Origin: a virus
DNA length: 64,000 nucleotides
Strand: one strand, 5' to 3'
Virus record (IMG/VR): IMGVR_UViG_3300025306_000003
Span: 1-64,000 of that record
The notes under the pieces: generated by a model
Database searches by the model: none
What the model was told of the DNA's origin: nothing
The model's input: the letters and a program-made list of their open reading frames with translations, nothing else
Position numbers and translations under genes: made by a program
Shown here: in pieces, positions 18,102 to 46,317 of the stretch
Layout of the letters: each line of letters begins with the position of its first letter
How positions within the stretch are numbered: position 1 is the stretch's first letter

Positions 18102-18309
18102 TGAGCACCTTTCGCGTGGTTTTTTGGCGAGCGGGCTTCTCTTGTGAGATGCACACTGCACACAGCCACTCTTCCCTACTGCGATCAATTACAGTGTAGC
18201 GCCATCCGGCCTGCGCAAGTTCTTTTCTTGCAACAAGCTCAGATGGCGCAGTTTTGAAAAACCCCTTACCACACTTTTTACAAACGCCGTGAAGACCAGT
18301 CAGAACCAT
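17992..18309 (-). CDS. Zinc-ribbon protein
   Basis: A 105-residue product with CKKCGKGFF and CAVC pairs about 45 residues apart and a strongly basic C-terminus. GGAGGGGG precedes ATG 18309. Its last 110 nt overlap the nuclease gene in another frame, an unusually long overlap for this genome; the true functional part is probably the first 70 residues. Confidence 0.55.
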   Translation of the reverse strand: MVLTGLHGVCKKCGKGFFKTAPSELVARKELAQAGWRYTVIDRSREEWLCAVCISQEKPARQKTTRKVLNESERVERQRKKSGAFVSRRSEENASRFRFIRNRRG

Positions 18310-29864: not shown

Positions 29865-30155
29865 TTAAGACCTCCAAGTCTTCTTTTGCCGCGAATGGAA
29901 AATCATGATACCCGCGTCGGAACTTGAGAGAAAACCTCCTCCTCGAACAGGAATTGAAAAGAACGTATCTGGAATGCCGCACCTGACTACTTGCAACTTT
30001 CCAGTATCTGAATTGTAAGCTCTAGCTCTACGAATCATCGCGCCCGAGGGATACGTGATCTCTTCCGGTTCCAACCACGTACCCAAAATGTCGGAAGGCG
30101 CTTCGGTGCGCATACCAAAGTAGTTCGCAACACGCGGACGCGGCTCTTTCCTCAT
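29865..30155 (-). CDS. Hypothetical protein
   Basis: A 96-residue product (MRKEPRPRVANYFGMRTEAP...) with a small beta-sheet pattern and a Gly/Ser-rich loop (VRGGGFLSSSD). ATG 30155 overlaps the polymerase stop (ATGA). No family recognised. Confidence 0.6.
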   Translation of the reverse strand: MRKEPRPRVANYFGMRTEAPSDILGTWLEPEEITYPSGAMIRRARAYNSDTGKLQVVRCGIPDTFFSIPVRGGGFLSSSDAGIMIFHSRQKKTWRS

Positions 30156-33100
30156 ACAGCTTCCTCCTTTTCGAGACTACCCAATGCAATTCCGTATTTC
30201 ATGTCGGCCTTGATGGGCACTTTGAGTTTCTTTCCCAACCACTTCAACGTATCTGGGTTGTTCATAATGTTCTGAACGAATGCCATTTCCTTTTTGAGAT
30301 ATTTCTTCGGGATTTCAAGGTACACAGCGTCGTGCTGCTCCATAATGAATTTGTAATGGTGTGTCGGATACGCCTCCAGTAACATCGCGATCTGCACAAG
30401 CAAAACGTCGTGCGCCGACGATTGAATCGGCGTATTGATCGCCTGATTCGCGCCATGCTTATCAATCACATTGAGGTGTCTGCGTCTGCCAAACAAGTTT
30501 TCAACGTAACCATGTTTCTTAGCAAATGCAATCATCCCCCTTTGCCACTTCAGCAATTGTGGGAATCTTTGATAGTACCGTCTATGAAAATCCGCTACTT
30601 CTTGTGGAGACATAGAAAAATTAGAAATTTTCCTGCACAATTGATCATACAATCCATCAGCATCCAAACCGTAGGCAGTTCCAAAGTTTACGGATTTTGC
30701 TACAGTACGTTGCCAATCTGCCAATTCAGCATCATCAGGCTTTTCACCAAACAAAAATTGACGGGTTTCCTCATGAAAATCAGCATCATCAATAAAAATC
30801 TGAAGCAGGGCTTTATCCTCAGACATCTCAGCCAGCACCCGCATTTCGATCTGGCTGCTGTCAAACTTGACAAGCACATGTCCGGGGGCTGCTACGAATT
30901 GGTCAAGCAATTCCTTTTTCTTTTTAATATTGTGCAACCGATACGAAGCGCGACCTGTATTGTGATTCATAACAGCATTGGCAACAAAACCATGTGTTAC
31001 TGGGACGGTCAAATCATAGACTGGAATAACAGGTCCAGGTTCTCTGTGCATCAACTTCACATAAAGACCATCCTTTCTGAAATTGTGCTCTGACCAAGAG
31101 CGAGTATGGGGAATCTTCGCACGAAATACCTTAGCAATTCCCGCTTGTTTCTGACTCAAACACCCCACCTCAGACAAGTAACGCAGGATTGAATGTCCGG
31201 TCACATCCAAGCTGTAATAATAAGGTGCCGTGGCATTTCCAGTCCGTCGAACTGGATGCTTGTACTCTGTGCGTTTGAAATGGCACCGCACCCCCAAGTT
31301 CCAAAGTACTTGCTGAACAATCTCCAATCGGAACTTGTCCAAAGAACGAAACCTGATTAGATACTGTAAGCATTTCCCATTACGCACAACACACCAGCTA
31401 CTATCTAGCGAAACCCCACGAACGAATGCACACATCGCTGACTTGTCTCCCCCCAAGATCCACGCAGGCACGTGCTTCTCCGCCGCACCATTCAAAGGGA
31501 AATCCATCAACCATTTAGCAGTAACGTCCTTTCCGGTTATGTGTACGCTGCCATTGCTGGCATCCCAAGAAGTCTCCCGAGCGTATAAAACCTGAGAAAT
31601 TGCATTTACACGTTTTAGAACATAAATATCTCTATTTGAAATGGACAAAGAGTAATGTCCCGAATTCTCCCGGTTTGTGATGTGCCCATCAGACAAAAAC
31701 ATACCCAATAATTCAGCTTCCTCACTAGAACAAGTAGAAACACTTGGGAAGAAATTTGCACCAAATCCAGTCTGGATGTAATCTGCAGATGTGAGATCGG
31801 CTGCCTCCTTCCAGCCCGTTTCTGTCAACAACGGGTGCTCCGGCGTACAGCACAAATGTAGTCCGCACCCAAAAGTGAGATTCAACGTCGTGCGCCTCCG
31901 CGCAACATACGTATATGAAGTATTTCTAGGACCGTCTGGCGACAAAATCCCAATCCTGCGGGAAACAAATCCCTCCTTATGATCACACAAGACATCTGCG
32001 AACGCGAGACCCTCGCTGGTCCAAATCAACGTATCTGCAGACACACAGTCGGTTCCGTGAAGAAACAACGGAGCACGCGCACGGTCGTCCGCACCCACGA
32101 TCTCCCAGATACCATCGACAAACGTACCTTTGTCTTTGCTTAGATCCTTGAAATCGGAGAACGCCTCCAATACAGGATTCTTCACATACTTATTGAGGAT
32201 CGTGATGACTGGATCAGAAACAGACCAGCGCCCTGTAGGCGTTTTCATGTTTCCGATTTCCTGAATACCTTCACGTGGGAGCTTTTTATGGAGCTTCAAT
32301 CTATCGAATAATGCCGCACCCATCTGTGGACCCGAATTCACGTTGATGCTCGGATCCCCCACGGCCAACCTAACCCTGCGTTCCAAATGACGAATACGCT
32401 TCTCCAAGTCTTTGGAAAGTTTCTTGGAGTAAGGCATATCAAAACCGATTCCGTTTTTCTCCATCGCTTCGTATGCACGTGAAACGAATGCGTACAATCT
32501 GCCGAGGCGCTGCTGATCTTCTGTCAGATGCGTTCTCTGCTGATCCGCAGCGATATGCGTTACGCACGCATCCAAACCATTATACTTGCAGAGAAGGTCT
32601 TCGGGCACTGAACTGAGGTGCGACATGAATTCAGAATACATCGCATTCGACTCGCGCTTGTACCCCTGAAGCTTTCTGCGATACTCCACAAACTCGTAAT
32701 CATAGCCCCCCATCTTGGCGAATCGCGCCGCAACCATGTCCAAGTCATGAATCCCCCTACGTTCGTCCCACAAATAAGAACCATACATGGTGTCCCATGC
32801 ATAATTCTCCACATCACAAACGAAAACGCCTTCAAGCATCCCACGATCATAGCCGTTGAAGTTCTGCCCAACCTTTGCGATCTTGGAGTCTGCCAAAATC
32901 TGCTGAAATTTTGCGTAGACCTTAGCGGTAATAAGCCGTCTCGGGACCACAAGCGCTTTGTAATCGTCATCGAAGGTCATGGCGATACTCAAGATCTTTG
33001 CGCCTTCACCTTCAACGTCTATCGCAGTTTCGCCTTTCACCCAACCCAAAAGCGTCAAAGCCTCATGTTCGGATCTCGCCACAAACACCTTCGGATTTTT

Positions 33101-33697
33101 GGGGACGGGCTTGGTCAGAAGCTCTTGTGCCAACTGCAAATCGGAAATGAACTGATCAATTACAGTCGGGTCAAAGTTCCTGACACGCATCACGTAACTG
33201 GGATGCCAAGTCGGCACAACAAAAATCGATTTGTTTCTGTACCTAAAAATCGTTCCACGCATCTTGGCAATACCATCGCGATTAAGCAACGCCATACACG
33301 GCGTGTTGCCCAATGCGACGATGACCTTAGGCTGACACTTCGAGATTGTTTCCTCCAAGTATTTTGAGCAACAGTAAACTTCCTGATCGGTAGGCGCTCT
33401 ATTTGCCTTTCCAAGAGTCGGCCGACACTTCGCGGCATTCGCAATCGACACCTGAAGCGGATCAATGCCAACAGCACGCATTGCAAGCCGCAACGTCTGT
33501 CCAGCTTTACCGATGAAAGGGACTCCCTGTGCAACTTCGTCCTCTCCAGGGGCTTCGCCGACGAAGAGCAATCCACCAGCACCAATATTTGGGAGGTATG
33601 GTCGAACTTGCCCCTCAAAATTCGCAGTTCTGTTGATATTTAGTGGACAAACATCGCAGCCCCTGAAGTTGGGATCGAACGCGCTCTTTTTTGCCAT
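30152..33697 (-). CDS. DNA polymerase I (family A) with N-terminal uracil-DNA-glycosylase domain and intein
   Basis: The 1181-codon frame encodes, in order: (1) a family 4-type UDG domain (1-195): CDVC, GEAPGEDEVAQG, CRPTLGK, YCC, WHPSYV; (2) a 3'-5' exonuclease (about 220-400): AIDVEGE, GQNFNGYD, YNGLDA; (3) the polymerase domain with motif A KFDSSQIEMR (Asp946), motif B RTVAKSVNFGTAYG and motif C EQHDAVYLE (Asp1123). A 363-residue intein interrupts the TGR motif (551-913); after splicing 818 residues remain. UDG-polymerase fusion has precedent in phage SPO1. Phe1005 in motif B matches bacterial Pol I. Confidence 0.92.
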   Translation of the reverse strand: MAKKSAFDPNFRGCDVCPLNINRTANFEGQVRPYLPNIGAGGLLFVGEAPGEDEVAQGVPFIGKAGQTLRLAMRAVGIDPLQVSIANAAKCRPTLGKANRAPTDQEVYCCSKYLEETISKCQPKVIVALGNTPCMALLNRDGIAKMRGTIFRYRNKSIFVVPTWHPSYVMRVRNFDPTVIDQFISDLQLAQELLTKPVPKNPKVFVARSEHEALTLLGWVKGETAIDVEGEGAKILSIAMTFDDDYKALVVPRRLITAKVYAKFQQILADSKIAKVGQNFNGYDRGMLEGVFVCDVENYAWDTMYGSYLWDERRGIHDLDMVAARFAKMGGYDYEFVEYRRKLQGYKRESNAMYSEFMSHLSSVPEDLLCKYNGLDACVTHIAADQQRTHLTEDQQRLGRLYAFVSRAYEAMEKNGIGFDMPYSKKLSKDLEKRIRHLERRVRLAVGDPSINVNSGPQMGAALFDRLKLHKKLPREGIQEIGNMKTPTGRWSVSDPVITILNKYVKNPVLEAFSDFKDLSKDKGTFVDGIWEIVGADDRARAPLFLHGTDCVSADTLIWTSEGLAFADVLCDHKEGFVSRRIGILSPDGPRNTSYTYVARRRTTLNLTFGCGLHLCCTPEHPLLTETGWKEAADLTSADYIQTGFGANFFPSVSTCSSEEAELLGMFLSDGHITNRENSGHYSLSISNRDIYVLKRVNAISQVLYARETSWDASNGSVHITGKDVTAKWLMDFPLNGAAEKHVPAWILGGDKSAMCAFVRGVSLDSSWCVVRNGKCLQYLIRFRSLDKFRLEIVQQVLWNLGVRCHFKRTEYKHPVRRTGNATAPYYYSLDVTGHSILRYLSEVGCLSQKQAGIAKVFRAKIPHTRSWSEHNFRKDGLYVKLMHREPGPVIPVYDLTVPVTHGFVANAVMNHNTGRASYRLHNIKKKKELLDQFVAAPGHVLVKFDSSQIEMRVLAEMSEDKALLQIFIDDADFHEETRQFLFGEKPDDAELADWQRTVAKSVNFGTAYGLDADGLYDQLCRKISNFSMSPQEVADFHRRYYQRFPQLLKWQRGMIAFAKKHGYVENLFGRRRHLNVIDKHGANQAINTPIQSSAHDVLLVQIAMLLEAYPTHHYKFIMEQHDAVYLEIPKKYLKKEMAFVQNIMNNPDTLKWLGKKLKVPIKADMKYGIALGSLEKEEAV
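30959..32047 (-). mobile_element. Intein inside the DNA polymerase gene, with homing-endonuclease-like core
   Basis: The 363-residue insert begins with Cys551 (CVSADTLIWTSEGL, splicing block A) and contains a block B-like CTPEHPLLT. It has a LAGLIDADG-like stretch (ELLGMFLSDGHIT) and ends GFVANAVMNHN before Thr914 of the host protein. It splits the family-A motif HGTD|TGRASYR, one of the most conserved polymerase positions. The N-terminal Cys, the penultimate His, the final Asn and a +1 Thr are all present, so it should splice. Only one clear LAGLIDADG-like motif is seen, so nuclease activity is uncertain. Confidence 0.88.
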
Positions 33698-37897: not shown

Positions 37898-38676
37898 CCT
37901 TTGTGTTAGCTTACGTTCGCACGTAAGAGCAGACTATATCTTCATCTTGATTCTGGCTTTCTCTTGCCAACGGATACGGGCACAACATCGTACACATCGC
38001 CCATGACTTTCGTGCCTACGCTCTGTCGTGTTGCAAATAATACAAGCATCATAATGAAACGCCCACCGACCCGCATACTTACTTTTCAAAGCAGCACACA
38101 ATTCCTGTCGATGACGCAACAAATGACACCCACGACAAAACCCCATCAACCTCTCAGGCGAATGTCCAGGAGTCAAACCCAAAGATTCGTAAGATCTCCC
38201 ATCGCCATCCAGATGATGCACTACGGTAGCTTTCGCACCACAGTCAAAACATCTGCCCCAAGTCTTTTTGAAAATCTCAACTCGCAAAATTCCAAAATGC
38301 CGAAGTTCACGTTTGAGCTTTTCCTTTCGCCTGAAAGCCTTATCTAATCGCAGTACGGCATAACACTCCCGCGACCTTTCAATCAGGTGTTGACGGTGCT
38401 TCTGATAATACTTTTTGTAATAGTCGGGATCAGATGGTTTTCCGCCCATAGCGTTCTCCTTATGCTTTGAATAGCATAACAGAAAACACTAAGGATTTCA
38501 AGAGCAAGGCGTGTAGTCGTTGAGGGGCCAATCACGGCTTCCCTGCGGATTTTCTGCACCCAAACATTTTTACCGACATCCGGTGATAAGCCTCGGTAGT
38601 TTAGGATACTCAGACGTTCCCGCATACAGCCCTGTTACGTATCGCAAGTCACCCTGCGAGTGAGTCCGTAAAGTCA
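37898..38676 (-). mobile_element. Group I intron in the MoxR gene, encoding an HNH protein
   Basis: The 779-nt insertion has group I core elements on the minus strand: R-type CCTCAACGACTACACG (38508-38523) and S-type AAGATATAGTC (37932-37942), plus a Q-like AATCCGCAGGGAAGCC. Proposed splice sites are ...GATGAGTT|TGAC and ...CAAAGG|TTTCAAAG: exon 1 ends in T and the intron in G, as group I introns require. Splicing restores LDEFFKATGS, the expected MoxR sequence. The HNH frame sits between the R and S elements. Confidence 0.88.
37934..38449 (-). CDS. Intron-encoded HNH endonuclease
   Basis: A 171-residue basic protein with a Cys-containing HNH-type fold: WGRCFDCGAKATVVHHLDGD, followed by FCRGCHLLRHRQ and a second Cys cluster (CIICN...CVRCCAR). 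It lies in the loop before the intron S element and its stop overlaps that element. AAGGAG precedes ATG 38449. It should promote intron homing into intron-less MoxR genes. Confidence 0.8.
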   Translation of the reverse strand: MGGKPSDPDYYKKYYQKHRQHLIERSRECYAVLRLDKAFRRKEKLKRELRHFGILRVEIFKKTWGRCFDCGAKATVVHHLDGDGRSYESLGLTPGHSPERLMGFCRGCHLLRHRQELCAALKSKYAGRWAFHYDACIICNTTERRHESHGRCVRCCARIRWQEKARIKMKI

Positions 38677-39071
38677 AACTCATCCAAGAACGCAAAATGC
38701 ACAGAGGGGAACATGCCATCAATATTCCGACGATAGACATCCTTCTTGAGACCGGACAAGCGGATGGGACCAAAGAGATCTTCGGGTTTGGTGAACTTGT
38801 TCACAAGGTGCTCGAAGTACGCAGAGTCCGCGAACGTCTCACAGACCTTTTCAACCAACAGGGATTTGGTCACGCCCTTCGGGCCAATCTGAAAGTGGTG
38901 CTTCTGTGCCAGCACCGCAACCATCGCGCCGTGCAGGACTTCGGTGCGCTCCACAAACTGATCATCCAAAGCACTCACAGCAGCATTGAAATGCGTGTAC
39001 AGTTTGCCATTACCATTCGAAGACACATTGCGGACCTTGCGGACATGAGAGGAACTTTTTTTGCCTATCAT
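38677..39071 (-). CDS. MoxR-family AAA+ ATPase, exon 1 (N-terminal part)
   Basis: ATG 39071 follows AGGAGAG. Exon 1 encodes 131 residues with Walker A GPKGVTKS (63-70), the MoxR block FTKPEDLFGP and Walker B FAFLDE (126-131), and is then cut by the intron. Unspliced, translation would continue DFTDSLAG to a TGA at 38649, giving a truncated ATPase without sensor regions. See exon 2 at 37132-37897. Confidence 0.85.
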
Positions 39072-40819: not shown

Positions 40820-40903
40820 CCGCTCTTCGAAGCGGTCCATTCGCCTATCGTCTTCGCGATAAGCGGATGAAACGCTTGGGGCGCGACCTCTCAGCCGCGC
40901 CCC
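40820..40903 (-). promoter_or_regulatory. Three consecutive stable hairpins in the leader of the 40346 gene
   Basis: CCGCT-CTTCGA-AGCGG (40820-40835), TATCG-TCTTCG-CGATA with flanking CGC/GCG (40842-40865) and GGGGCGCG...CGCGCCCC (40878-40903) follow each other. The first two have UUCG-type loops. Together they occupy most of the 283-nt gap between 40780 and 41064. The third may terminate upstream transcription; as a group they look like a structured leader. A palindrome CATCTTGTCAAGATG lies at 40942-40956. Confidence 0.55.
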
Positions 40904-41063
40904 TCTTACTTACCGCATTAGTATTTCCCTGAGTCTCTTTGCATCTTGTCAAGATGGTCTCAATTCGAGACTCGCGCCTTTTCGCGGCGCACGGGCATAG
41001 ACAATATCCTCCAAGTATTTTCAATCGTCACACGTAACCATTCGAGCCATCATAACCCCAACC

Positions 41064-41550: not shown

Positions 41551-41823
41551 CTACGCCATCAACTTCTTCCCAAGCTGCTTCTTGAACTTAGGCCAACTGG
41601 TTGCGATCAGGTCCATCACGTCGGGGCCGATCCGCTTCATGGGCCAAGTGCGAACGGAACCGAACGCATCGGGGGAACTCTTCCCCATGACCGCGATCTT
41701 GGGTTTGCCTCCGTCATAGGACATCAGCGCGAGTACCACTTCGTAGTCCTCGATGTTGCCGACCGTAATGGTCGCGATCACTTTGTCTTTTGAAGCATCA
41801 AAAGCATTTGCGAATCTTGCCAT
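41551..41823 (-). CDS. Hypothetical protein downstream of the structured RNA region
   Basis: A 90-residue product (MARFANAFDASKDKVIATIT...), alpha/beta, basic at the C-terminus (KFKKQLGKKLMA). AAGAGGTG precedes ATG 41823; an in-frame ATG at 41952 is possible but has no ribosome site. No family recognised. Confidence 0.65.
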   Translation of the reverse strand: MARFANAFDASKDKVIATITVGNIEDYEVVLALMSYDGGKPKIAVMGKSSPDAFGSVRTWPMKRIGPDVMDLIATSWPKFKKQLGKKLMA

Positions 41824-41989
41824 ACTATTCACCTCTTCTTTTTGGATGATGGTTGAAAATCCGAGTCTTTTACCAGACCGTACCAACATGGTGCAGCCAT
41901 TTCGGGGCTCACGTGCGTCACCGTCGTGGAAGCCCCGTACATCGCCGCTCATATCGTCTGTTTGGATTGTGTCCTAAAGGTAGGTTTTT

Positions 41990-42746
41990 TGATTTGAGTG
42001 AGGTTTATCCTATGGACCCTCACTGACATTCGTTTCTGTGCCATCGCGCACAATGAGCAATGTTGAACTCATGCAGATTCTACTTGGTTGCCTTCAAGGG
42101 AGATATTCACTGAGATCAACGTGTGACGCCTAGCGGCCAATCCACGTCTCTCATCTCACTGCGCCAATCCTTTCCCTAACACCCTTCAAGCTTGTTCGTC
42201 CTCGCCGGACTTCCACCTGTCGGAGTTTCGCTCACGGGATTTAGCGTCTCAAGGTCTTTCGTATCGGAGTACTGCGACCCCTGCCGTGTTTGTTTCAACA
42301 CGGACTTTCCTCACTATCGCTGAGTCACGCCAAGTCTTTTTTCCGATCCCTCGCGGGCATCTCGCCCACTTGATCGATTAGACTCTGCGCTAACCTGCTA
42401 CCCGATTTGCTATGTCGGGAAAAATGTTTGTACGGGTTCTCAGGACTTCTCGTGGCATCTCAAGGATGCTATCCTTGCCCTCTTGTCAGACTCACCGTCC
42501 AGAAGTGGCAATCAGAACCAAGCGCCCAAGTCTTTTTCGTTGCGGCCTCGCCAATCGCCCTAGTCCCAAAACATCCCTTGTCGGCGTCATCCATGCGGGT
42601 CCACCGCTCTGGACTTTTTGGTTTCGAAAGAGGTGAATGTTCGACCCCTTTCAAGGGTTGTGGGCTCGTCCCAGCGGGCTCTCACTCCCACATCCCTCCC
42701 ACTTGAATCAGATTCAAGCTCCATTTCGAGCGTACACTCTAGTGGA
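41990..42746 (-). ncRNA. Candidate large structured non-coding RNA
   Basis: About 0.75 kb without a credible gene on either strand, downstream of a good promoter. The minus strand is full of local helices: CTTGAAT-CTG-ATTCAAG, CAAGGAT-AGC-ATCCTTG, CCGTGTT-GAAACA-AACACGG, CCCGA...TCGGG, and GTTGATCTCA...TGAGTTCAAC (9 of 10 pairs) near the 3' end. Two copies of AAGACTTGG and a diverged third lie inside. GAGGAAAGTCC resembles a conserved stretch of RNase P RNA, but the other RNase P regions are absent. Class unknown; the 3' end is not defined. Confidence 0.6.
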
Positions 42747-42752
42747 AGTGTA

Positions 42753-42781
42753 ATAGTAACATACCGTATGTCTATAGTCAA
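42753..42781 (-). promoter_or_regulatory. Promoter with operator-like palindrome for the structured RNA
   Basis: TTGACT (42781-42776), a 17-nt spacer and TACTAT (42758-42753) on the minus strand. The spacer carries the near-perfect palindrome ACATACGGTATGT, a likely operator. Transcription would start near 42746. Confidence 0.6.
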
Positions 42782-42831
42782 CTAAAAAGATGAAATAAAA
42801 TGAGCTTGCTACTATAAGAGTAGTAATAAGA

Positions 42832-42885
42832 CATTTCACACAGCGAAACGCTAAGAATGAAATCACGTTTCACACAGTAAAACGC
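42832..42885. repeat. Pair of 20-bp direct repeats (iteron-like)
   Basis: CATTTCACACAGCGAAACGC (42832-42851) and CGTTTCACACAGTAAAACGC (42866-42885) match at 17 of 20 positions, 34 bp apart start to start, about three helical turns. The decamer GAAATCACGT also occurs twice nearby (42859 and 42909). They lie just upstream of the RNA promoter and could bind a phage regulator or replication initiator. Confidence 0.6.
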
Positions 42886-42912
42886 AGATCTCCAAGTCTT
42901 TTTACTTCGAAA

Positions 42913-43056
42913 TCACGTCCCACAATCGGAGCACTGAGCGTCTTCCGAACCAGAGCAAGCTTCGCAGTACATCTTGCCGCAGTCCTCGCACCCACACAGT
43001 TCATCGGGATTTACAAACTCCCCGCACACATCACAGAGACCTTCGGTCTGACTCAT
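42913..43056 (-). CDS. 47-residue Cys-rich zinc protein
   Basis: The product has nine Cys in CxxC-type pairs (CDVC, CGCEDCGKMYCEAC, CSDC), giving probably two zinc sites. AAGAGGTG precedes ATG 43056, which overlaps the previous stop (ATGA). No family recognised. Confidence 0.65.
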   Translation of the reverse strand: MSQTEGLCDVCGEFVNPDELCGCEDCGKMYCEACSGSEDAQCSDCGT

Positions 43057-43502
43057 GCACACCTCTTTTTGACTGACTTGATTGTAAGTGTAACCTCGCC
43101 AGGATCGGTCGAGTAAATGATCTTACCAAATCGCTCCACGCTGCCTAAGCGCCTCGGAAGCACGGTGTGGTGCAGCATACCGGAGGCGACAGGGATCTTG
43201 ACGTACAAGATCACCCTCAGACCCTCTTCGTCAAACAACCCTGCAATCAACACCTTGGTATTTTTGGGGACCGAGTTGGTATGCAACTGCCACGCGGGAT
43301 ACCTATAAACACGGTCGCTTGTGGTCATACCTATAGATCCCAGGTTCATGGTGCGCACCACAACAAGCTCACCAGCACTATCTCGATAGCACCTACTTCG
43401 ATTGGTCGGTCCCATTGTGTGCCTCAAGGGATAACCCAAATCCGAAAGGACTTTCAACACGATATCCTCCCGGTCGTTCAGACTCCAAATCTTGTTCTTC
43501 AT
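43053..43502 (-). CDS. Hypothetical protein after the primase gene
   Basis: A 149-residue, beta-rich product (MKNKIWSLNDREDIVLKVLS...) with central VPKNTKVLIAGLFDEEG. The ATGA overlap with the primase gene implies coupled translation. No family recognised. Confidence 0.65.
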   Translation of the reverse strand: MKNKIWSLNDREDIVLKVLSDLGYPLRHTMGPTNRSRCYRDSAGELVVVRTMNLGSIGMTTSDRVYRYPAWQLHTNSVPKNTKVLIAGLFDEEGLRVILYVKIPVASGMLHHTVLPRRLGSVERFGKIIYSTDPGEVTLTIKSVKKRCA

Positions 43503-44422
43503 AAGAAAGCTCCTAACCCATAATTCACATTACGCAACGCTTGTGCCACAACGTGGTCGATCTCACATTGCTCAGCCTCACCTGGATCCTTCGCTTGCAC
43601 GAACGTCACGGAGATATGCATAAATGCCGACAACGCTCTTGCCATCTCAGCAGCGAACTTCGCAGCATCGCGGTCCAGCATTATCACGGCCCTACCCCAG
43701 GTGCGAGTGATCAATAACTTTTGACGCTCGGATAAACGATTCCCAAATAATGCAACTGCGCTATCTGGAAGTCTCATTGCATCGTACGGCCCCTCGGTGA
43801 GCACCACATATGAACTGCTCTTGGCATTGTCGAAGTTGTACAAATAATCCGCAGCTTTGAATCCCGGCGGAAACTTGTACTTAGGCTTTTCGTCTGGAGA
43901 AATTGCTCTCGCAGTGAACCCCACCATCACGCCCTCATGTTCGACGGGAAGAACCACTCTCTGTGCATAGTCGCCCAAGACGCAAAATCCCAGTTTGTAC
44001 TTCTCGATCAGATCCTGACCGACGCCACGCTTGTATAGATAACGAAGTGCTGCGGCATGTCTGGGTCTCGTACCGCTCAAAGGCTTGCACTCTTTGGGTA
44101 CGGGGAAGGCTTGCGCCACAACCTTCCCTGAGATCGGAGCGGTCAAAGGGGGGAACGTCCCTTGACGGCCTCGCTTGAGCCCGATCAATACGTGAGCATC
44201 TTTCCAAGGCAACCCAAGCTCATGAAGCAATTCCAACACCGAACCGCTGCTGTCACACCGAAAACAATGGAATGCTTGAAAATTCTCTTTCAGAGAAATC
44301 CCCATATGAAACTTCGTATCGGGAGACTTCCCATGATTCTCACATAGGGGACAACAAGCTCGATAAGCATCGCCCCTATCACGCTTCACCCTCAAATGAG
44401 ATTCCAACCATTCCAACAGCAT
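43499..44422 (-). CDS. DNA primase (zinc finger plus Toprim)
   Basis: A 307-residue DnaG-type product with an N-terminal zinc finger (CCPLCENHG...HCFRCDSSG), an RNA-polymerase linker region and a Toprim core with TEGPYDAMR and VIMLDRDAA. It makes RNA primers for the phage polymerase and pairs with the DnaB-like helicase upstream. ATG 44422 is chosen because a GTG at 44482 would overlap the structured leader; it lacks the C-terminal helicase-binding domain of bacterial DnaG. Confidence 0.85.
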   Translation of the reverse strand: MLLEWLESHLRVKRDRGDAYRACCPLCENHGKSPDTKFHMGISLKENFQAFHCFRCDSSGSVLELLHELGLPWKDAHVLIGLKRGRQGTFPPLTAPISGKVVAQAFPVPKECKPLSGTRPRHAAALRYLYKRGVGQDLIEKYKLGFCVLGDYAQRVVLPVEHEGVMVGFTARAISPDEKPKYKFPPGFKAADYLYNFDNAKSSSYVVLTEGPYDAMRLPDSAVALFGNRLSERQKLLITRTWGRAVIMLDRDAAKFAAEMARALSAFMHISVTFVQAKDPGEAEQCEIDHVVAQALRNVNYGLGAFL

Positions 44423-44446
44423 CGCGGCCTCGCACACAAAACAGCA

Positions 44447-44496
44447 GGAGGGCTCCCGAATATCGATTCGGGATTTAGGCACTCGGCCAACCCTCC
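44447..44496 (-). promoter_or_regulatory. tRNA-like mini-structure in the primase 5' leader
   Basis: On the minus strand GGAGGG and CCCTCC close a 50-nt element. It contains TTGGCCGAGTG, which resembles a tRNA-Ser D-arm, and a perfect hairpin CCCGAAT-CGAT-ATTCGGG. It starts about 27 nt after the promoter's likely start site and ends 25 nt before the primase ATG. It hides a GGAGGG ribosome-site-like sequence, so it may gate a GTG-start form of primase or protect the 5' end. Confidence 0.5.
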
Positions 44497-44529
44497 ATAC
44501 TGTTCAGCAATTTCCCAGCTCAAAGTACT

Positions 44530-44559
44530 ATTATACTAAAGTAAGATTTCCAATAGCAA
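44530..44559 (-). promoter_or_regulatory. Sigma-70-like promoter for the primase operon
   Basis: TTGCTA (44559-44554), 18-nt spacer and a perfect TATAAT (44535-44530) on the minus strand. It lies after the HNH gene and before the primase leader structure. Confidence 0.7.
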
Positions 44560-44572
44560 GAGAATAATGAAA

Positions 44573-44875
44573 TTAAAAAGGAAGTTCCTCAAGAGGTTCC
44601 AACTCCCCAGGCCGAGGTCTTGGAAGCGTCTTGGCATTGCAAGACTTACACAAAAGCTCCAAGTTGCCTTCCGCAAAATCCCGCTCATAGTGATTCATTC
44701 GCAAGTATGGATTCATCGACCGCGCAATCCAATCCCGCCCATAAGGGTGGTGAAACTCCAATTTCTCAACCTGCCCGCATTGCTGGCAGGCACCCCCCAT
44801 CTTTTTAAGCAATGCATCTCTGCGCCGTTTACGCGCAATCTTCAACCATACATTATTACGTTCAGTCTTTGTCAT
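44573..44875 (-). CDS. Small HNH endonuclease
   Basis: A 100-residue product with CQQCG, LEFHHPYGRDW, and a C-terminal GNLELLCKSCN, a complete zinc-bound HNH core. ATG 44875 overlaps the helicase stop. It could be a homing enzyme inserted between helicase and primase operons or a packaging/nicking nuclease; the place next to a DnaB gene favours homing. Confidence 0.75.
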   Translation of the reverse strand: MTKTERNNVWLKIARKRRRDALLKKMGGACQQCGQVEKLEFHHPYGRDWIARSMNPYLRMNHYERDFAEGNLELLCKSCNAKTLPRPRPGELEPLEELPF

Positions 44876-46317
44876 CACAGCACCCGAGTTCTTGCATTGG
44901 AGCGTCTACGTGTGGCAGTCGTTCCTGCTTTCAATTCCTGCTCAGCGTTGTAACCTTTGATCTCATCTCCAAGAACCATAGTAGCCGAGCTGGAATAAAA
45001 GATTCCGTGTGTGAAATCACATGCGAAACTCACATCGTATTTATCTCCGCGACCTCTGTGCTTGGTTACAAACAATCGGACCACACGTTCGTTGTGCAGC
45101 ACGTCTTTCTCTTCCCACTGTCGATTCTTAGTATCGAAGATAATATTGCGGTTGAAACCTATAAAAATATCCGAGACACGAACCTTCTCATAACTGTCAC
45201 CTACTTCCAATTCGGTAATACGTTTGACACCGACACCGGATCTCGCTGATTGAGTAGCGACCCAAATTGCTATGTTCTCCTCCACAGCAAACGCTTTCAA
45301 TGCACGCCACACCATCCCCTGCTCTTCGTATCTGTTCTTTCCATTCGTTGCCAACAGATCGCCATAGTCAATAATTACGAGACTGGGTTTCCCATCTCTT
45401 GCAGCACGATTCCGAAAGTCCTGGCGAAGCGCCTCTACTTTTGAGCGCTTTGCAGTTTCACCGTAACCAAATGCAAGGTACACCACCTGCAGTGCCCCAC
45501 CATGCTGCTGAAATGTCCGCACACGCTTTGCCAACTTTCTCGCGATTGCAGAATTCGAAAGCTCTTCCTCAGTCGCGCCGATGAACATCTGATCGTAACG
45601 TGTGATGATTTCATCCCTGGACATTTCCAACGTGTAATGAAAAACGGACATCCCCTGTGCAAGTGCGGCCTTGCCGAGATGTACTAGAAAAAATGACTTC
45701 CCCACTCCCGAGGGAGACATGATAGTTCCTACTTGACCAAGCTTGATTCCTTTCATCTTTGCATCCAAAGGATGTATAAGTGTAGCTATCGGAGGGGCTT
45801 CTTCCTCTGCCATTCGAGCTACGCTTCTGTGCCACGTCTCCGCAAGTACGTCGGGCACTCCTTCTTCAGCTTCCTGCTTTTGACTCTGGATGCGCATAAG
45901 AGGCGCAGTCAGTTCCGACAGATCATATTCACCGGAGGAAAACTTCGGTAGAAAATCCTCCAGCACTTGACGCATCTCGGAATGCTGAATGAATTTGTTC
46001 ACCTCTTCGATGACATAGGATTCGTCCCCGAGTTCTGAGGGGGCCAGTTCGTCGATGAGATCAAGAATCAACATTTGACCTTCATCAGAAACCTTCGTGC
46101 GCTTTGCGTACTTGAGAACCTCATTCGAAATGTTGTCCCCAGGCGCTACCGCAAACTTATCAAAGTATGCGTATGCTAAGGAACACACCGTCCACTGTTC
46201 CTTCGATGGAAAATGTTCGGGCTGTAATCTCTCGCGCATGGTGTTCAAAAACTCAGTGGAATAAACCACCATTGCGAGCACTTTCGTTTGCATGGATTGT
46301 GTAAGGTCTAGTTTCAC
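44875..46317 (-). CDS. DnaB-like replicative helicase
   Basis: The 480-residue product has a DnaB-type N-terminal helical domain and a RecA-fold core: Walker A SPSGVGKS (201-208), HYTLEMSRDEI, Walker B LVIIDYGDLL, and the late arginine-finger region RHRG-type (TKHRGRGDKYDV). It should unwind DNA at the phage fork together with the primase. GTG 46317 overlaps the upstream TGA (GTGA). Confidence 0.85.
   Translation of the reverse strand: MKLDLTQSMQTKVLAMVVYSTEFLNTMRERLQPEHFPSKEQWTVCSLAYAYFDKFAVAPGDNISNEVLKYAKRTKVSDEGQMLILDLIDELAPSELGDESYVIEEVNKFIQHSEMRQVLEDFLPKFSSGEYDLSELTAPLMRIQSQKQEAEEGVPDVLAETWHRSVARMAEEEAPPIATLIHPLDAKMKGIKLGQVGTIMSPSGVGKSFFLVHLGKAALAQGMSVFHYTLEMSRDEIITRYDQMFIGATEEELSNSAIARKLAKRVRTFQQHGGALQVVYLAFGYGETAKRSKVEALRQDFRNRAARDGKPSLVIIDYGDLLATNGKNRYEEQGMVWRALKAFAVEENIAIWVATQSARSGVGVKRITELEVGDSYEKVRVSDIFIGFNRNIIFDTKNRQWEEKDVLHNERVVRLFVTKHRGRGDKYDVSFACDFTHGIFYSSSATMVLGDEIKGYNAEQELKAGTTATRRRSNARTRVL

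What the first reader, a model, noticed from the sequence alone, without database searches (positions are those of the whole stretch)
41990..42746. Large structured non-coding RNA candidate with its own regulated promoter
In a genome with almost no gaps, about 920 nt between 41823 and 42746 contain no credible gene. The minus strand holds many perfect local hairpins, a 9/10 long-range helix near the 3' end, and follows a TTGACT-N17-TACTAT promoter with a palindromic operator. Size and density of helices recall ornate large phage RNAs (GOLLD, ROOL, HEARO classes), but I recognise none of their sequences. GAGGAAAGTCC resembles one RNase P conserved region, without the others.
Basis: partly seen in the sequence, partly recalled or inferred. 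Interest (0 to 1): 0.88.

Follow-up and report, generated by a model that had tools for sequence, protein, structure and literature searches.

The report
Orphan structured phage RNA candidate
A roughly 0.9-kb stretch of a divergent, uncultured phage genome codes for no protein and, only when read on the transcribed strand, folds better than chance into a closed multi-branched RNA, so it may be a new large phage RNA, but no relatives or expression data exist yet to prove it.

Summary
The gap is real: on the minus strand, 41824-42912 shows no coding signal in any frame and is the longest such stretch in the window. Only one overlapping contig of this virus is held (100% identical). No homologue turned up in phage, plasmid or IMG/VR searches, so covariation, the decisive test, could not be run. 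With those ends (42746-41872) the fold is z = -4.5 against shuffles on the minus strand and -1.15 on the plus strand; a genuine group I intron core in the same genome scores only -1.9. Base composition is rRNA-like (19% U). Local helix density is ordinary, however, and the promoter is a plausible single consensus hit, no more frequent than chance in its region. GOLLD, ROOL, HEARO and RNase P covariance models do not match. Most likely a structured untranslated RNA, free-standing or a long leader of the downstream genes. Moderately interesting, unproven.

The parts
41872..42746 (-). candidate structured RNA, revised limits (start = predicted transcription start, end = 3' edge of the closing helix)
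   Evidence: z -4.51 on minus, -1.15 on plus strand; no coding signal
42753..42781 (-). sigma-70-like promoter TTGACT-N17-TACTAT with extended -10 TG
   Evidence: consensus match only, region-wide number of hits near chance
42759..42771 (.). near-perfect palindrome ACATACGGTATGT inside the promoter spacer, possible operator
   Evidence: unique in the window
42732..42743 (-). 5' arm of the terminal closing helix (ACUAGA G UGUAC)
   Evidence: pairs with 41872-41883, P 0.99; more distal pairing than all 40 shuffles and 60 control windows
41872..41883 (-). 3' arm of the terminal closing helix (GUACG G UCUGGU)
41884..41956 (-).
   Evidence: 77-nt window 41882-41958: z -4.44, 0 of 200 shuffles as good; plus strand -2.12
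42327..42390 (-). long stem-loop GCGC/GAGUCU/UCGAUC/GUGGGC, pair probabilities 0.91-1.0
   Evidence: windows 42327-42446 and 42267-42386: z -3.24 and -3.81; probabilities
42284..42303 (-). perfect 7-bp hairpin CCGUGUU/AACACGG following GAGGAAAGU
   Evidence: P 0.99
42625..42653 (-). 9-10 bp hairpin GAAAGGGGU/ACCUCUUUC
   Evidence: P 0.95-1.0
42461..42477 (-). perfect 7-bp hairpin CAAGGAU/AUCCUUG
42702..42718 (-). perfect 7-bp hairpin CUUGAAU/AUUCAAG
42526..42535 (-). copy of the genome-wide motif AAAGACTTGG
42330..42339 (-). copy of AAAGACTTGG, partly within a stem
41861..41870 (-). variant AAAGACTCGG directly after the closing helix
42831..42885 (-). tandem palindromic repeats upstream of the promoter, forming a minus-strand hairpin; likely end of the upstream transcript or operators
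   Evidence: 62-nt window 42829-42890: z -4.90 minus, -1.10 plus; repeats 34 bp apart
41551..41823 (-). downstream gene, 90 aa, no family match; begins about 50 nt after the closing helix with no terminator-like site between
42913..43062 (-). possible upstream gene, 49-aa cysteine-rich zinc-ribbon-like protein

Best explanation
A phage-encoded, untranslated, highly structured RNA of about 0.87 kb is transcribed on the minus strand from a sigma-70-like extended -10 promoter at 42781-42753, starting near 42746. Its 5' end pairs with nucleotides 41883-41872 to close a large multi-branched fold with several stable arms (42390-42327, 42303-42284, 42653-42625, 41956-41884). Most likely mechanism (inferred): a stable structural RNA made with the early/replication genes that acts as RNA, by binding proteins or copies of itself, as GOLLD and ROOL do. 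No terminator separates it from the gene at 41823, so it would be released by processing or would remain as a long structured leader. Shown: absence of coding, strand-specific folding excess, predicted end-to-end helix. Inferred: transcription, processing, function.
For: Coding-free in all frames. z -4.51 on minus against -1.15 on plus with the revised ends; z -3.9 for the whole 923 nt with 0 of 40 shuffles as good; best of 26 same-size windows. Terminal helix stronger than in 40 shuffles and 60 control windows. U 19.3% against 25.9% in other gaps and 24.1% in coding sequence, G and A about 29% each; loops A-rich and structural entropy low, each second of 33 windows. A genuine group I intron core in the same genome has z of only -1.92.
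Against: No homologue outside one identical contig, so no covariation. Local fold energies are ordinary for this genome. Several control windows come close to the terminal helix value, and the 3' end was chosen after seeing the fold. Promoter hits in the region are near chance number. No terminator, no transcript data.
Confidence: 0.5

Rival explanations
1. The stretch is the long 5' untranslated leader of the downstream early genes (41823 and on), carrying regulatory structure such as the 73-nt hairpin about 60 nt upstream of the start codon and binding sites such as AAAGACTTGG; it is never a separate RNA.
For: Same strand, no terminator between 42746 and 41823; the strongest single hairpin of the stretch lies close to the gene start; the motif AAAGACTTGG recurs ahead of other genes in this region.
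Against: About 0.9 kb is far longer than usual leaders (general knowledge); the end-to-end closing helix and structured islands spread over the whole length are more than a leader needs.
Confidence: 0.27
2. Non-functional or decayed sequence (lost gene or mobile element relic) that happens to fold.
For: No homologue; local fold energy within the genome's range; z-scores of single sequences are weak evidence.
Against: G+C 52% and U-poor, unlike the other gaps; strand-specific fold excess; no trace of coding frames or family matches; phage genomes lose useless DNA quickly (general knowledge).
Confidence: 0.16
3. A DNA-level element: transcription-primed replication origin or operator region beside the primase and helicase genes, with the G-rich transcript forming an R-loop.
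For: AT-rich promoter stretch 42750-42905 (41% T on the minus strand) with tandem palindromes next to primase (43499-44482) and DnaB-like helicase.
Against: The GC-skew trend does not switch at 42 kb but near 49-50 kb; this does not explain strand-specific folding over 0.87 kb.
Confidence: 0.07

Closest known systems
Phage K (Herelleviridae) lncRNAs lnc001 and lnc002 (PMC9241854)
   Same: Long intergenic RNAs of a large lytic phage, 0.6-1.2 kb, minus strand; at least one from its own early promoter and abundantly transcribed.
   Different: Those lie beside tRNA genes and are shown by RNA-seq; here there is no tRNA, no expression data, and no DNA similarity in the phage collection.
GOLLD RNA (RF02032)
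   Same: Size (over 800 nt in many members), phage setting, multi-branched fold.
   Different: No covariance-model match at E up to 10; no tRNA neighbour.
ROOL RNA (RF03087)
   Same: Large RNA of phages and prophages.
   Different: No model match, though the control genomes of that search did not ring either.
Group I intron of this same phage, 37910-38686 (RF00028)
   Same: A structured RNA in the same early region.
   Different: That one sits inside a split MoxR-like gene and matches RF00028 at 45 bits; the 42-kb stretch matches nothing and has no recognisable exons around it.

Membership tests
GOLLD RNA | match to the conserved covariance model RF02032 | tested here: not met
   no match at E up to 10
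GOLLD RNA | neighbouring tRNA genes (frequent) | tested here: not met
   no tRNA in the window
ROOL RNA | match to covariance model RF03087 | tested here: not met
   no match; one search had no ringing control
HEARO (omega RNA of IscB/IsrB) | match to RF02033 and an adjoining IscB/IsrB/HNH open frame | tested here: not met
   no match; the nearest HNH-like ORF (44573-44878) is a 101-aa protein 1.8 kb away
RNase P RNA | conserved core (CR-I to CR-V, P4) as in RF00010 and related models | tested here: not met
   no match at E up to 10 while RF00010 rings in 11 of 14 control genomes; only GAGGAAAGTCC is shared
Group I or group II intron | covariance-model match and flanking exons of one gene | tested here: not met
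   group II fragment 13.9 bits, E 2.4, chance level; no group I match, although the true group I intron in this genome is found at E 4e-10
Large ornate phage RNA, as a kind | elaborate secondary structure supported by covariation | not testable with these tools
   only one distinct sequence known
Large ornate phage RNA, as a kind | discrete abundant transcript | not testable with these tools
   no RNA data for this uncultured phage
Large ornate phage RNA, as a kind | long non-coding stretch with significantly stable, strand-specific fold | tested here: met

The most novel reading that the evidence does not exclude
A new class of large structured phage RNA, unrelated in sequence to any Rfam family, closed by a 5'-3' terminal helix and carrying copies of a motif (AAAGACTTGG) that the phage repeats along its early transcripts, perhaps tying the RNA to a phage RNA-binding or RNA-processing protein.
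Probability: 0.33. Interest if true: 0.8.

Novelty: new variant of a known kind. Interest (0 to 1): 0.5.

Why it matters
Large structured phage RNAs such as GOLLD and ROOL are rare and their functions unknown. A further, sequence-unrelated class in a divergent environmental phage would suggest that such RNAs arose several times, and its compact anatomy gives something to test. The AAAGACTTGG motif would offer a handle on what binds it.

Tried and rejected
Homologue hunts that failed: blastn of the gap against phages and plasmids; relatives through primase, DnaB-like helicase, UvsW-like helicase and DNA polymerase, giving only the identical contig or distant relatives (helicases of about 30% identity or less); blastn of the RNA against fetched loci; DNA patterns for GTGAGGAAAGTCC, the AAATCCCGTG loop and the two-motif spacing, whose hits are unrelated. 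Rejected: RNase P, HEARO, GOLLD, group I/II intron (see membership tests); hidden or decayed gene. An 18-of-19 antisense match between 42430-42412 and the group I intron (38579-38561) is at chance level (E 0.55). A first genome-wide shuffle scan timed out and was replaced.

Full report
Setting. The window is part of a 64.6-kb virus record of a divergent tailed phage. Nearly all genes lie on the minus strand: portal, terminase, SbcCD, UvsX/RecA, a UDG-DNA polymerase A fusion with an intein, DnaG-like primase, DnaB-like helicase and a second helicase. The best phage-database matches of the two helicases are about 24-34% identical. One other IMG/VR contig (3300013088_000003, 36 kb) carries the locus, 100% identical over everything compared.

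Observation. On the minus strand the last possible upstream gene ends at 42913 and the next gene starts at 41823. Codon-usage scores between are at or below zero in all three minus frames; it is the longest gap in the gene model; peptide fragments from it match nothing convincing. An extended -10 promoter match sits at 42781-42753 with the palindrome ACATACGGTATGT in its spacer. Such promoter hits are near chance in number in this region (9 against 6.9), so the promoter is plausible rather than shown.

Folding. Local measures are unremarkable: 300-nt windows are ordinary, and 120-nt windows average z about -0.93, inside the control distribution. The excess therefore comes from particular islands and from long-range pairing. 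Islands: 42267-42446 (z -3.2 and -3.8), 41882-41958 (z -4.4) and 41967-42086 (z -2.4).

Corrected limits. When the transcript is taken to 41824, the nucleotides just after the predicted start (42743-42732) pair with 41883-41872 at probability 0.99. Expected distal pairing of the first 15 nt is 12.4, against a maximum of 10.3 in 40 shuffles and 11.2 in 60 control windows; since several controls reach 10, this is suggestive, not overwhelming. With limits 42746-41872 the minus strand has z = -4.51 and the plus strand -1.15. As a yardstick, the core of a genuine group I intron in the same genome (RF00028, E 4e-10) has z = -1.92.

Composition. The stretch has A 29, C 22, G 29, U 19%, whereas other gaps have 26% and coding sequence 24% U. 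This G/A-rich, U-poor make-up is usual for structured RNAs such as rRNA (general knowledge) and unlike decayed intergenic DNA.

Families. In the region only three chance-level Rfam matches appear (E 1.8-8.6), and targeted searches with GOLLD, ROOL, RNase P and HEARO give nothing (only the RNase P control rang above its cut-off). At the same relaxed setting the group I intron elsewhere in the window is found, so the scan works here.

Motif. AAAGACTTGG is the most over-represented 10-mer of the window: 14 exact copies, all on the minus strand, 0.29 expected from a Markov model; 8 in genes against 0.86 expected after synonymous-codon shuffling, 6 outside the gene model (one of these six, at 38258, lies in the intron ORF). 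Two lie inside the candidate RNA, one upstream of its promoter, and the variant AAAGACTCGG follows the closing helix directly. The two internal copies sit in different structural settings, so the motif is not a structural unit of the RNA. Its role is unexplained.

Judgement. A structured untranslated RNA is the best explanation, but it rests on a single sequence. Free-standing RNA versus long leader cannot be settled: no terminator separates it from gene 41823. Phage K shows that large lytic phages make 0.6-1.2 kb intergenic RNAs, at least one from its own early promoter (PMC9241854), and GOLLD and ROOL show that large phage RNAs can assemble as RNA-only particles (PMC12286853). Membership in any named class is not supported.

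Noticed in passing
37910-38686, minus strand: Group I intron (RF00028, 45.1 bits, E 4e-10, below Rfam's gathering score of 50) splitting a MoxR/RavA-type ATPase gene (5' part 39104 to about 38683, 3' part from about 37893) right after the FLDE motif; it carries a 171-aa ORF at 38449-37934 with HNH-like CxxC motifs and no Pfam match.
   Followed up: partly
14 sites between 2352 and 42901, 12 of them in 26.5-43 kb; all minus strand: AAAGACTTGG is strongly over-represented and strand-specific, in genes (8 against 0.86 expected) and gaps; several copies lie just before a start codon as AAAGACTTGGAG or near variants. Possible RNA-binding, processing or translation signal; unexplained.
   Followed up: partly
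42831-42885: Two palindromic repeats 34 bp apart whose pairing on the minus strand is kept through G.U pairs and lost on the plus strand (z -4.9 against -1.1), upstream of the RNA promoter; terminator, stability element or operators.
   Followed up: partly
30152-33697, minus strand: DNA polymerase A with an N-terminal uracil-DNA glycosylase domain and an intein with a LAGLIDADG-like part inserted ahead of the palm motifs.
   Followed up: no
40831-40950, 44431-44550 and 18151-18270, minus strand: Other strongly folding stretches outside the gene model (120-nt z -4.5 to -4.7), e.g. an 11-bp GGGGCGCGGCU/GGUCGCGCCCC hairpin at about 40.9 kb.
   Followed up: no
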